Shown: positions 8,213 to 11,162 of the stretch, in pieces
Numbering within the stretch: position 1 is the first letter of the stretch
Layout of the letters: every line of letters begins with the position of its first letter
Assembly (NCBI RefSeq): GCF_009827655.1
Contig: NZ_WTYV01000005.1
Span: 124,001 to 188,000, forward strand
Source of the DNA: Alteraurantiacibacter buctensis
GTDB lineage: Bacteria > Pseudomonadota > Alphaproteobacteria > Sphingomonadales > Sphingomonadaceae
DNA: 64,000 nucleotides
Direction of reading: 5' to 3'
The notes under the pieces: model-generated
Databases searched by the model: none
Told to the model about the DNA's origin: nothing
The model's input: only the letters and a program-made list of their open reading frames with translations
Made by a program: the position numbers and the translations under genes

Positions 8213-9001
8213 TTACTCGGCGGTGGCGGTTTCCTCGGCGGCAGGCTCTTCCACCAGCGCCGGCTCGTCCAGCGGGGCTTCCAGCGCGCCGACGTCGGCA
8301 CCGCTGTCGGCCACGGCACCCTGGCGGCCCTGGCTGGCAGCCTGGCCGATGGCTTCGCAATAGAGACGCACGGCGCGGGCCGCGTCATCGTTGCCCGGGA
8401 TCGGGAAGGCGATGCCGCTGGGATCCACGTTGGTATCCAGGATCGCGATCACCGGGATGCCGAGCACGTTGGCTTCCTTGATCGCCAGCTCTTCCTTGTT
8501 GGCGTCGATCACGAACATCACGTCCGGAATGCCGCCCATGTCGCGAATGCCGCCCAGCGACAGCTCCAGCTTGTCACGCTCGCGGGTGAGCTGCAGCACT
8601 TCCTTCTTGGTGAGACCGTGCATGGTGCCGCTCAGCTGCTCCTCAAGAGCCTTGAGGCGCTTGATCGACTGGCTGATGGTCTTCCAGTTGGTGAGCATGC
8701 CGCCCAGCCAGCGGTGGTTGACGAAGTGCTGGCCGCACTGGCGGGCGACCTGGGCGATCGGCTCCTGCGCCTGGCGCTTGGTGCCCACGAACAGCACCTT
8801 GCCGCCCTGGCGCACGGTGGCGGCCACGAAGTCCAGCGCGCGGGCGAACAGCGGCACGGTCTGCGACAGGTCGATGATGTGCACACCGTTGCGGGCGCCG
8901 AAGATATACGGCTTCATCCGCGGGTTCCAGCGGTGGGTCTGGTGGCCGAAGTGCGCGCCGGCCTCGATCAATTGGTGCATGGTGACGGTAGGGACCGCCA
9001 T
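8213..9001 (-). CDS. rpsB: 30S ribosomal protein S2
   Basis: Component of the small ribosomal subunit. 262 aa beginning [20 protein letters not shown], with the family blocks [41 protein letters not shown] and [17 protein letters not shown] 30-residue acidic/Ala-rich tail (ending [11 protein letters not shown]) is normal for this lineage. The Shine-Dalgarno GGAAAGGAATTACTT precedes the ATG. Its leader of more than 200 nt extends toward the plus-strand SOS-like promoter. Confidence 0.98.
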
Positions 9002-9350
9002 AAGTAATTCCTTTCCGGTTCAACCTCTGGAAGACGGGGAACCGCTCGCAAGCTGCGAAGGGCACCGGTGATGTGTGTCTTCCATGTGGATTTGCCGCCC
9101 GTTAGGCCGCCACGGAATTGCCGCAGCCCTGGTCGACGTGGCCGCCCTTAGCGGCACTCGGGGCAGATTGCCACCCCAATCGTGCAATCGTGGTCCGGCG
9201 AGCCGGCAAGAACAAAGCGCAAACATTGCCGTTGACATCGCGGAACGGAAATGGAACATGAGAACAAATGCGGAACTGAGGAACAAACCACGATTCCGTT
9301 GAGTTGTCAGACTGCCGGCCGGTCAGCCGGCCCAGGTTGGAGTAAGCGCC
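9002..9350. other. Divergent regulatory region between rpsB and a small membrane-protein gene
   Basis: About 350 bp without a gene. The left part is the untranslated leader of rpsB (minus strand). The right part (9232-9284) holds a TTGACA hexamer and the tandem GAAC-N7-GAAC boxes described separately, followed by an untranslated leader of roughly 80 nt up to the ATG at 9351. Confidence 0.6.
9232..9284 (+). promoter_or_regulatory. Promoter with tandem LexA-type boxes (GAAC-N7-GAAC twice)
   Basis: TTGACA at 9232-9237 looks like a -35 element. Starting just downstream, the tetramer GAAC occurs at 9243, 9254, 9262, 9273 and 9281, with alternating spacings of 11 and 8. This makes two perfect GAAC-N7-GAAC direct repeats (9243-9257 and 9262-9276) plus a half site. 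GTTC-N7-GTTC, the same motif on the other strand, is the established alphaproteobacterial LexA operator. The boxes would cover the -10 and start site for the gene at 9351. Confidence 0.7.
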
Positions 9351-9605
9351 ATGGTCGCCATTGCCATTTCCCTGCTGTTCGGCGGCCTGGCCGCCCTCGC
9401 CGCCTGGACCATTGCTTCGTCGCTGAAGCGGGGCATGGTGATCGGTCGCGAAATCTTGGCGGAACTCGCCGCCCTGGATAAGGCGCAAGTCAGTTCGTCT
9501 CCGACTTTCCGGCCCCTTCGCGGGCGTCCGGCTGTCAGTCAGCAGGCCTATACGCGTCAGGCAGTCCGCCTGCGTCCGCTGCGCCGCCCTTGCGCTGCCG
9601 CTTGA
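9351..9605 (+). CDS. Small single-helix membrane protein, predicted SOS-regulated
   Basis: 84 aa. Residues 3-24 (AISLLFGGLAALAAWTIASS) form one membrane helix. A basic SLKRGMVIGRE segment follows, then an amphipathic helix (ILAELAALDKA) and a basic Arg/Pro tail. No family recognised. GGAG lies 9 nt before the ATG. Tandem LexA-type boxes lie about 75 nt upstream. The last 71 nt overlap the 3' end of convergent pssA, so the tail sequence is constrained by that gene. Size, topology and putative LexA control recall the Caulobacter SOS division inhibitors SidA and DidA, but I see no clear sequence similarity. The division-inhibitor idea is inference. Confidence 0.65.
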   Translation: MVAIAISLLFGGLAALAAWTIASSLKRGMVIGREILAELAALDKAQVSSSPTFRPLRGRPAVSQQAYTRQAVRLRPLRRPCAAA

Positions 9606-10407
9606 CCCGGGCATAGCGCACTATGCCCAGCGGCATCAGCCCCAGGTAAACCGCGCAGATCACTGAGAGCGTCCACCAGGGTTCGCTCAGCAGGGCGGCA
9701 AAGGTCAGGCCGAAAAGGGCGATCATCACCAGCCGCAGGTCCTTGCTGGGGCGCAGCGACTTCCAGCTCAGCGTGGCAATGCTCGAGATCATCAGGAACG
9801 CAATAAGCACCAGCCAGCCCGCCACCAACCACGGATTGCGCAGCAGCGGCTCGCCCGTTTCCATCCACAGGTAGACTGGCAGGAAAGCCAGTCCCGCGCC
9901 CACAGGCGCAGGGATGCCGGTAAGAAAGCCGGCCGACTTGTGTGGTTGCTCGTCCGCATCGATCTGCGCATTGAACCGCGCCAAACGCAACGCGCAGCTG
10001 ATGGCAAAGCCGAGCGCTGCAAACCAGCCAAGCCGCGGCAGGTCGTTCAACGACCACAGGAACAGGATCAACGCCGGAGCCATGCCGAAGCTGAGCGAAT
10101 CGGCGAGGCTGTCCAGCTCTGCGCCGAAGCGGCTCTGCGCCTTGAGGAGGCGGGCAATGCGCCCGTCTATCCCGTCCAACACACCGGCAAAGACGATCGC
10201 CAGCAAAGCCATCTTCCAGTTGCCATCGATGGCAAAGCGGATGCCCGTAAGGCCGGAACAGAGCGCGGCCGCCGTAATTGCATTGGGGATTACGGCCCTG
10301 ACCGAGAGACCCCCGATGCGGCGCCCGCGCAGGGGAGAAAGCTGCTCGTGCTCGCTGGCGCTGGGGCCGACGCGGACGCCTTCCGGACCATCGCCCGCGG
10401 CCGTCAC
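9535..10407 (-). CDS. pssA: CDP-diacylglycerol-serine O-phosphatidyltransferase
   Basis: Makes phosphatidylserine from CDP-diacylglycerol and serine in the inner membrane. 290 aa. The CDP-alcohol phosphotransferase motif DG-x2-AR-x8-G-x3-D-x3-D is complete: DGIDGRIAR, then [10 protein letters not shown]. Several hydrophobic helices follow. The start overlaps the psd stop by 4 nt (ATGA), so the two consecutive enzymes of phosphatidylethanolamine synthesis are coupled. This membrane-spanning type matches the pssA of Gram-positives and alphaproteobacteria, not the E. coli type. Confidence 0.95.
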
Positions 10408-11162
10408 AGGCTGACGCCCTCGATGAGACCCTGCTTACCGGTCTCTGCGAGTACGGTCTCGCCAGCAACCACCTTCTGGCCCAGCAGCACGCGCGAATCG
10501 GTTCCGGCCGGCAGATAGACATCCACCCGGCTACCAAAGCGGATCAGGCCAATGCGCTGCCCGGCAGCCAGCAGGTCACCCGGTTTGACAAAGGGGATGA
10601 TCCGGCGCGCCACCAGACCGGCAATCTGGGTGAAACCGATCGGTACGCCGTCCGCACGCTCTATCAGCATGTGCTGGCGCTCGTTCTCCTCGCTTGCCTT
10701 GTCGAGATCGGCGTTGAGGAACTTGCCGGGGATGTAGACCACCCGCTGCAGGGTGCCCGACACGGGCGCCCGGTTGATGTGGACATCGAATACCGACATG
10801 AAGATGGAAATGCGGGTGACCGGTTCGGTTCCCAGGCCACGCCCGCTGCCATCATCGCCCTGCAGTTCCGGCGGCGGCGGCACCTGGGTGATAAGTGACA
10901 CCAGCCCGTCCGCCGGTGAGACGATCAGGTGTTCACCCTGCGGCACCACCCGCTCGGGATCGCGGAAGAAGGCGAACACGAACACCGTCAACGCCAGCAT
11001 CGGCCAGCCGAGGTACTCCCAGTCCAGTCCGAACAGTACCGCGAGCGCCGCAACCAGGGCGATCAGCCCGAACTTGCGCCCTTCGGGATGCACCGAAGGC
11101 CAACGCCACTCTGCTTCGCCGCGACCGCGATTGTCTTTCAGTTCACCTGCCATCCCTCGCAT
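10404..11162 (-). CDS. psd: Phosphatidylserine decarboxylase proenzyme
   Basis: Pyruvoyl-dependent decarboxylase turning phosphatidylserine into phosphatidylethanolamine. About 252 aa, the short archaeal/alphaproteobacterial type. The autocatalytic cleavage site is in [12 protein letters not shown] (Gly-Ser), giving a short alpha chain with the pyruvoyl group. [16 protein letters not shown] is the other conserved block. Two hydrophobic segments near residues 32-65 anchor the protein. An alternative ATG lies at 11153. It is directly upstream of pssA and downstream of tRNA-Tyr on the same strand. Confidence 0.95.

What the first reader, a model, noticed from the sequence alone, without database searches (positions are those of the whole stretch)
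9232..9605. A small membrane protein behind tandem LexA-type boxes: candidate new SOS gene
The promoter has two perfect GAAC-N7-GAAC repeats (9243-9257, 9262-9276) plus a further half site, phased 11-8-11-8. GTTC-N7-GTTC (same motif, opposite strand) is the established alphaproteobacterial LexA operator. Two in tandem in 34 bp are very unlikely by chance. The ORF 75 nt downstream (84 aa, ATG with GGAG) encodes one membrane helix and a basic tail, a size and topology shared with Caulobacter SOS division inhibitors SidA and DidA. It shows no clear sequence similarity to them.
Basis: partly seen in the sequence, partly recalled or inferred. Interest (0 to 1): 0.8.

Follow-up and report, generated by a model that had tools for sequence, protein, structure and literature searches.

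The report
Family-wide SOS-controlled small membrane protein
A short, overlooked gene for a one-helix membrane protein appears to be under DNA-damage (LexA) control in one family of bacteria, and it is a good candidate for the protein that stops these cells dividing while their DNA is repaired.

Summary
Two perfect GAAC-N7-GAAC boxes (9243-9257, 9262-9276) and a fifth half-site (9281) follow a TTGACA that points at the 84-aa ORF. The same motif precedes lexA, recA and uvrA in this genome; uvrA has the identical TTGAC-N6-box layout. All 29 genus loci analysed (window included) have box and ORF. Of 30 sampled family genomes, 29 have a box (27 perfect, 2 with one mismatch) at the locus: 27 beside pssA, 2 upstream of rpsB with no pssA matched nearby. 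Outside the family: 1 of 51 rpsB-anchored and 0 of 40 pssA-anchored loci. In all 6 genomes where pssA was found away from rpsB, a box stays with pssA, so it hardly serves rpsB. Relatives' ORFs are under protein-level selection (pN/pS 0.28). No Pfam, NCBIfam or PHROGs family fits convincingly. Best reading: a LexA-repressed single-span inner-membrane protein, most likely a division inhibitor working like SidA. LexA control is near certain but unmeasured; the division step is inferred. Correction: SidA has 29 residues and DidA is SOS-independent. New member of a known kind.

The parts
9232..9237 (+). TTGACA, probable -35 element of the ORF's promoter
   Evidence: Sequence; TTGAC 4-7 nt before a perfect box in 47 of 51 ORF-bearing loci, 38 of them at 6 nt, and 0 of 51 pointing towards rpsB
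9243..9257 (-). LexA-type box 1, GTTCCATTTCCGTTC; lies after the -35, its last half-site on the inferred -10
9255..9260 (+). AACATG, inferred -10 position (17-nt spacer), overlaps box 1
   Evidence: Inference from spacing only; the consensus promoter scan found nothing
9262..9276 (-). LexA-type box 2, GTTCCGCATTTGTTC; differs by 2 bases from the uvrA box of the same genome (GTTCCGCAAATGTTC)
9281..9284 (+). Fifth GAAC half-site, 8 bp after the fourth
9339..9342 (+). GGAG, Shine-Dalgarno-like
9351..9605 (+). 84-aa small membrane protein: predicted helix 2-48 with the hydrophobic part at about 2-24, then a basic tail
9535..9605 (.). Convergent overlap of the ORF with the 3' end of the pssA-like gene; present in 47 of the 49 loci (of 51) where the pssA end was found
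9535..10407 (-). pssA-like CDP-alcohol phosphatidyltransferase gene (convergent neighbour)
   Evidence: PF01066 E 5.7e-26
8213..9001 (-). rpsB, divergent neighbour (not the likely target of the boxes)
   Evidence: PF00318

Best explanation
A LexA-controlled SOS gene. In undamaged cells LexA binds the tandem boxes, which lie between and over the -35 and the inferred -10, and blocks the promoter. After DNA damage RecA-driven LexA cleavage frees the promoter and a small single-span inner-membrane protein is made. By the positive-inside rule its N terminus faces the periplasm and its basic tail the cytoplasm. The most likely action is to hold up cell division through its membrane helix, in the manner of SidA acting on FtsW, until repair is done. 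Supported here by sequence: conserved boxes and promoter, motif shared with lexA/recA/uvrA, protein-level selection in relatives, one predicted helix, basic tail. Inferred: LexA binding, induction, membrane insertion and orientation, the division target. My probability is about 0.93 for LexA control and about 0.5 for division inhibition.
For: LexA motif: same GTTC-N7-GTTC upstream of lexA, recA, uvrA, an mmcB-like gene and rmuC in this genome (lexA also by TIGR00498, 171.6 bits); uvrA has TTGAC-N6-GAAC-N7-GAAC as here; GTTCN7GTTC is the Caulobacter LexA consensus (PMC12700426, passages). Genus: 29 of 29 loci analysed (window included) with box and ORF, 28 of 29 with two or more boxes; all 9 loci also have boxes after TTGAC, though several repeat species already counted. 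Family: 21 of 30 rpsB-upstream regions with a perfect box plus 2 with one mismatch; for the other 7 genomes pssA was found in 6, all 6 with a box downstream of it, 5 with the ORF. Specificity: 0 of 23 loci of other families of the order and 1 of 28 of the class upstream of rpsB; 0 of 23 and 0 of 17 downstream of pssA. Markov control: 1.5% of regions carry a box by chance. Coding: pooled pN/pS 0.28, substitutions by codon position 177/94/416 over the 24 genus pairs above 72% nucleotide identity. Topology: net charge after residue 24 positive in 51 of 51, first 3 residues about 0; AF2 helix 2-48, mean pLDDT 79.5. No SulA match in the genome.
Against: No binding, expression or phenotype data. Box 1's core departs from the commonest bases (G at position 6 in only 4 of 47 boxes). 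No similarity to a proven division inhibitor could be shown, and SidA's sequence was not at hand. The 24 pairs of the coding test do not include the window's own ORF, which is divergent (29-45% identity); its differences from the 28 others are 609/454/788 by codon position, a weaker third-position excess. The conserved face S7-G11-A14 is not significant as a helical moment (p = 0.15). One family genome (L261) has the box but no ORF was found; in G025 pssA was not found at all. Another boxed ORF of this genome (L103, 76-78 aa) also has a weaker N-terminal hydrophobic stretch and a basic tail.
Confidence: 0.55

Rival explanations
1. SOS-induced membrane peptide that lowers the proton gradient and makes cells dormant, as TisB does in E. 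coli.
For: Same kind of regulation and a hydrophobic N-terminal helix. TisB is LexA-controlled and depolarises the membrane (PMC8145889, start of abstract in the listing).
Against: TisB-type toxins come with a small antisense RNA and a structured leader (recalled); here the distance from nearest box to start varies from 2 to 135 nt in the genus and Rfam finds nothing at the locus. Length (54-98 aa) and the conserved stretch after the helix (E38 invariant in the genus) suggest a protein partner.
Confidence: 0.17
2. SOS-induced modulator of the neighbouring PssA or of membrane lipid synthesis, through the protein or through the convergent transcript.
For: The ORF overlaps the pssA 3' end in 47 of 49 loci, and the box stays with pssA when pssA lies away from rpsB (6 of 6 boxes, 5 of 6 ORFs). 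No terminator-like site found in 8900-10500 (a simple scan).
Against: An overlap by itself locks two genes together. Protein-level selection in the non-overlapping part points to the protein as the product.
Confidence: 0.17
3. The boxes regulate rpsB.
For: They lie about 240 bp upstream of the rpsB start codon.
Against: 0 of 51 loci have a TTGAC-box promoter pointing at rpsB. In 6 genomes pssA lies on another contig than rpsB or more than 190 kb away, rpsB is not in the pssA stretch, and the box is beside pssA and not found upstream of rpsB (in 2 of the 6 only 266 and 634 nt were available there).
Confidence: 0.02
4. The GAAC-N7-GAAC repeats are bound by a regulator other than LexA.
For: No binding data; about half of the genome-wide matches are expected by chance.
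Against: Same motif, spacing and promoter placement as at uvrA, and the motif at lexA and recA.
Confidence: 0.04

Closest known systems
SidA of Caulobacter crescentus (SOS division inhibitor, interacts with FtsW)
   Same: LexA box of the same type (GTTCN7GTTC), small inner-membrane protein, Alphaproteobacteria (PMC4211646, PMC12700426, passages)
   Different: SidA has 29 aa, this family 54-98; no similarity shown (SidA sequence not at hand); FtsW binding unknown
DidA of Caulobacter (71 aa, damage-induced division inhibitor, interacts with FtsN)
   Same: Size and one predicted membrane helix (PMC4211646, passages)
   Different: DidA is induced by DriD independently of SOS; here the promoter carries LexA-type boxes
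YneA (B. subtilis), SosA (S. aureus), ChiZ (M. tuberculosis)
   Same: Damage-induced membrane proteins that act late in division (PMC13396833, passages)
   Different: YneA has an extracellular LysM domain; here the tail is short, basic, probably cytoplasmic, and without a known domain
TisB (E. coli SOS membrane toxin)
   Same: LexA-controlled hydrophobic peptide (PMC8145889, abstract start in listing)
   Different: Length; no known RNA family or constant leader found at this locus

Membership tests
LexA (SOS) regulon | GTTC-N7-GTTC operator in the promoter | tested here: met
   same motif at lexA, recA, uvrA
LexA (SOS) regulon | Operator and gene conserved together in relatives | tested here: met
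   29 of 29 genus loci; 29 of 30 family genomes with a box, 27 perfect and 2 with one mismatch; ORF found in 28 of the 30
LexA (SOS) regulon | LexA binding and damage induction dependent on recA/lexA | not testable with these tools
   Needs EMSA or ChIP and RNA-seq
SOS-induced small membrane division inhibitors (SidA, SosA, YneA type) | Short protein with one membrane helix | tested here: met
   By prediction only: hydropathy and AF2
SOS-induced small membrane division inhibitors (SidA, SosA, YneA type) | Blocks division when expressed; binds FtsW or another late divisome protein | not testable with these tools
   Bench test needed
SidA family by sequence | Sequence similarity to SidA | not tested
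   SidA sequence not available; the 2011 paper is not held
SulA family (PF03846) | Match to the SulA profile | tested here: not met
   No match at E <= 0.001 in the window's genome; not among the Pfam matches of the 26 members
TisB/IstR type I toxin-antitoxin | Antisense RNA or structured leader at the locus | tested here: inconclusive
   No Rfam family at the locus; leader length not constant; no direct search for a new antisense RNA

The most novel reading that the evidence does not exclude
A damage-controlled convergent pair: one LexA-repressed transcript both encodes a membrane division inhibitor and runs antisense into the end of pssA in almost every member of the family, so that DNA damage slows septation and phospholipid (phosphatidylserine/ethanolamine) synthesis together.
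Probability: 0.1. Interest if true: 0.78.

Novelty: new member of a known kind. Interest (0 to 1): 0.6.

Why it matters
SOS division inhibitors are short and fast-evolving, and easily missed by annotation (recalled). My searches of the open-access library turned up no such inhibitor described for this family of bacteria (listings only, subscription papers mostly absent). This locus gives a family-wide, testable candidate with a fixed address (the 3' end of pssA) and a readable promoter. It also shows how synteny plus operator conservation can trace a protein family too divergent for plain sequence search.

Tried and rejected
Conserved Ala-Ala ending as a ClpXP degron: 35 of 51 ORFs end in AA, which looked like a turnover signal. 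Rejected as evidence, because the ORF end is antisense to the PssA C-terminal codons in 47 of 49 loci, and in the overlap the substitutions (69/122/109 by ORF codon position) do not show selection on the ORF frame; I read them as the PssA frame dominating.

Conserved helix face (S7, G11, A14) as a binding surface: the periodicity test is not significant (p = 0.15 for conservation, 0.82 for small residues).

Plain protein search: one sequence finds 17 of 199 family genomes, many of them weak hits, and nothing in genome contigs. The profile A1 finds 59 of 397 genomes, 28 of 96 genera, 12 of the 59 from the genus itself; of 18 loci outside the genus inspected, 17 have a box and lie beside rpsB, and L161 is spurious. 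Absence in sequence search is therefore no evidence of absence.

First negative reading: 7 of 30 family genomes seemed to lack box and ORF with rpsB as anchor. Anchoring on pssA found a box in 6; in the seventh (G025) pssA was not found.

'The only small membrane ORF behind a box': first written so, then dropped. The scan of 95 boxes in 79 fetched stretches (ATG starts, 20-120 aa, within 150 nt) also lists other hydrophobic ORFs; most have the hydrophobic part in mid-protein or look secreted or pilin-like, but L103 is a weaker look-alike. Boxes with mismatches were not scanned.

Family matches of single members (best: bestrophin-like PF14023 E 0.00046, 3 of 26 members; DUF6187 PF19685 E 0.0018, 5 of 26; others weaker) are scattered and were set aside. 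PTS_EIIC for the window protein is E 0.086, below cut-off. Rfam: nothing at the locus. Promoter/terminator scan: nothing found, so the -10 is inferred. Plasmids: no match for one genus member.

Rows dropped or weak: 2 of 40 genus genomes had no rpsB match and 8 of the 38 others no locus; L055 was dropped because my pattern missed its rpsB start. In the family the ORF list (22 loci) was selected by a hydrophobicity filter with ATG starts, L180 was added by eye, so the 51 loci are chosen for having the ORF. Among the 51 outside controls several flanks are short (271 to 730 nt) and L242 begins inside rpsB. In one search, L282 had only 60 nt, L265-L267 and the weak matches L312-L322 were not used; 4 of the 40 outside loci show a hydrophobic ORF by the same filter (L272, L293, L294, L305) but no box.

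Full report
What is there. The window carries rpsB (8213-9001, minus), a gap of about 350 bp, then an 84-aa ORF on the plus strand (9351-9605) whose last 71 nt overlap the convergent end of a pssA-like gene (9535-10407, minus; PF01066 E 5.7e-26). In the gap are two perfect GAAC-N7-GAAC repeats at 9243 and 9262 and a fifth half-site at 9281. TTGACA at 9232-9237 reads towards the ORF. The two boxes are the only such motifs in the window. The genome has 101 matches against 50 for the reversed control; in the 100 listed I see no other pair within 40 bp, and none closer than 60 bp is in the 79 stretches fetched.

Is it LexA. In the same genome the motif stands upstream of lexA (L107; TIGR00498 171.6 bits at C17:215442), recA (L086), uvrA (L085), an mmcB-like gene (L067) and rmuC (L118); Pfam confirms these five. 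Further names (radA for L106, uvrD for L088) are by eye only; Pfam gave L106 RecA/KaiC-type ATPase matches and L088 was not scanned. The uvrA promoter has TTGAC, 6 nt, GAAC-N7-GAAC, the same layout as here, and box 2 differs from the uvrA box by two bases. The Caulobacter LexA consensus is GTTCN7GTTC (PMC12700426 and PMC4211646, passages). About half of the genome-wide matches are chance, and 46 of 95 examined lie inside long ORFs, so the motif alone would not be enough; conservation carries the case.

Conservation in the genus. rpsB was found in 38 of 40 genus genomes; 30 loci were held and 29 analysed, the window among them. All 29 have a small ORF divergent from rpsB (consensus MxxAIAISLFFGLVAA...RxIRAELAAxDRA from 26 of them), and all 29 have at least one box, 28 at least two. 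A scan of named genomes with 12 members as query gave 9 loci: 5 Aurantiacibacter, 1 uncultured Erythrobacter, 3 uncultured Sphingomonadaceae; all 9 have boxes behind TTGAC.

Conservation in the family. In 30 family genomes outside the genus (27, 3), 21 rpsB-upstream regions have a perfect box and 2 more a one-mismatch box in the same place (L174, L175). A pssA-like gene follows in 21 of the 30; of these 21, 20 have the ORF in the table and L180 has it by eye, and 19 have a perfect box. L186 and L190 have box and ORF although no pssA was matched near. The remaining 7 showed neither upstream of rpsB. Searching them for pssA found it in 6. In all 6 a box stands downstream of pssA in the expected orientation with a TTGAC before it, and 5 have the small membrane ORF between. 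In these 6 genomes rpsB is on another contig or more than 190 kb away and is not in the pssA stretch; in L261 the box is about 500 nt from the pssA stop, that pssA frame is broken, and no ORF was found. So box and ORF travel with pssA, not with rpsB. In other families of the order the counts are 0 of 23 (rpsB anchor) and 0 of 23 (pssA anchor); in the rest of the class 1 of 28 (L221) and 0 of 17.

The promoter. Over 51 loci chosen for having the ORF, 47 have TTGAC 4-7 nt before a perfect box, 38 of them at 6 nt; none of the 51 has such a promoter towards rpsB. The operator thus fills the spacer and reaches the -10 position, a usual place for a repressor. A first-order Markov control gives a box in 1.5% of regions. 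Extra boxes are mainly a feature of the genus; of the 22 family loci in that set 17 have one, 3 more than one and 2 none that is perfect. Spacing between successive boxes is 17-21 bp in 19 of 43 cases and 33-35 bp in 17.

The protein. In the part that does not overlap pssA, the 24 genus pairs above 72% nucleotide identity give pooled pS 0.480 and pN 0.134 (ratio 0.28) and substitutions of 177/94/416 at codon positions 1/2/3. Pairs share sequences and were picked for closeness, so this is a description, not a p-value. The window's own ORF is in none of these pairs; against the 28 others its differences are 609/454/788. AlphaFold2 on 26 genus sequences gives one helix, residues 2-48, pLDDT 94-98 over the first 40 residues and 55-62 in the tail. 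The first three residues carry about no net charge and the part after residue 24 is positive in 51 of 51, which by the positive-inside rule puts the tail in the cytoplasm. No family in Pfam, NCBIfam or PHROGs fits convincingly, and no SulA match was found in the genome. Members outside the genus are matched by the genus profile in part of the cases and otherwise assigned by position, promoter and topology, not by sequence.

What it does. A LexA-repressed, short, single-span membrane protein, conserved in position and fast-changing in sequence, fits the class of damage-induced division inhibitors that act through the membrane on FtsW or its partners: SidA, SosA, ChiZ, YneA (PMC13396833, passages). 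Among the boxed small ORFs scanned in this genome it has the strongest N-terminal hydrophobic stretch (H 2.18) followed by a basic tail; L103 is a weaker look-alike. The division step is an inference. The chief rivals are a TisB-like depolarising peptide and an effect on the overlapping pssA.

DidA is not an SOS gene and SidA has only 29 residues (PMC4211646, passages). The rpsB alternative is excluded as far as sequence can.

Literature. Searches in an open-access library (listings) turned up no description of this gene or of an SOS division inhibitor in this family. Passages were seen of PMC4211646, PMC12700426, PMC13384398, PMC13396833 and PMC1839093. Erill et al. 2004 and the 2011 SidA paper are not held, so a mention there cannot be excluded.

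Noticed in passing
L115 (G000:C18:200856), ORF L115:1291-1695 +: A perfect box ends 19 nt before the start of a 135-aa protein without Pfam match: another possible unknown SOS gene of this genome.
   Followed up: partly
L083:2792-3208 - (G000:C15:387076): GTTCTCATTCTGTTC 68 nt upstream of a 139-aa protein without Pfam match, hydrophobic in part by eye.
   Followed up: partly
L103 (G000:C17:12513): A 76-78 aa ORF with an N-terminal hydrophobic stretch and basic tail starts about 95 nt after the box GTTCTTTATTTGTTC; whether it is a gene was not tested.
   Followed up: no
G000:C10:28085, C15:802273, C16:70080: The same box GTTCTATATATGTTC occurs three times; the C16 copy precedes a long ORF 14 nt downstream.
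   Followed up: no
L128 and L129 (G000:C20:217382-218260 and C21:2216-3094): Two stretches on different contigs carry the same pair of boxes beside nearly the same ORFs: a duplicated element, perhaps a prophage or an assembly copy.
   Followed up: no
L096 and L104 (G000:C16:34474/34715, C17:37612/37835): Two boxes 223-241 bp apart near a pilin-like small membrane protein in both places, perhaps conjugation genes under SOS control.
   Followed up: no
window 9535-9605: Convergent gene overlap with pssA, seen in 47 of 49 loci; selection on the ORF frame is not visible in the overlap.
   Followed up: partly
L257 (positions 655-680 of the convergent strand used): Two boxes share a half-site (GAAC-N7-GAAC-N7-GAAC), a three-half-site ladder.
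   Followed up: no
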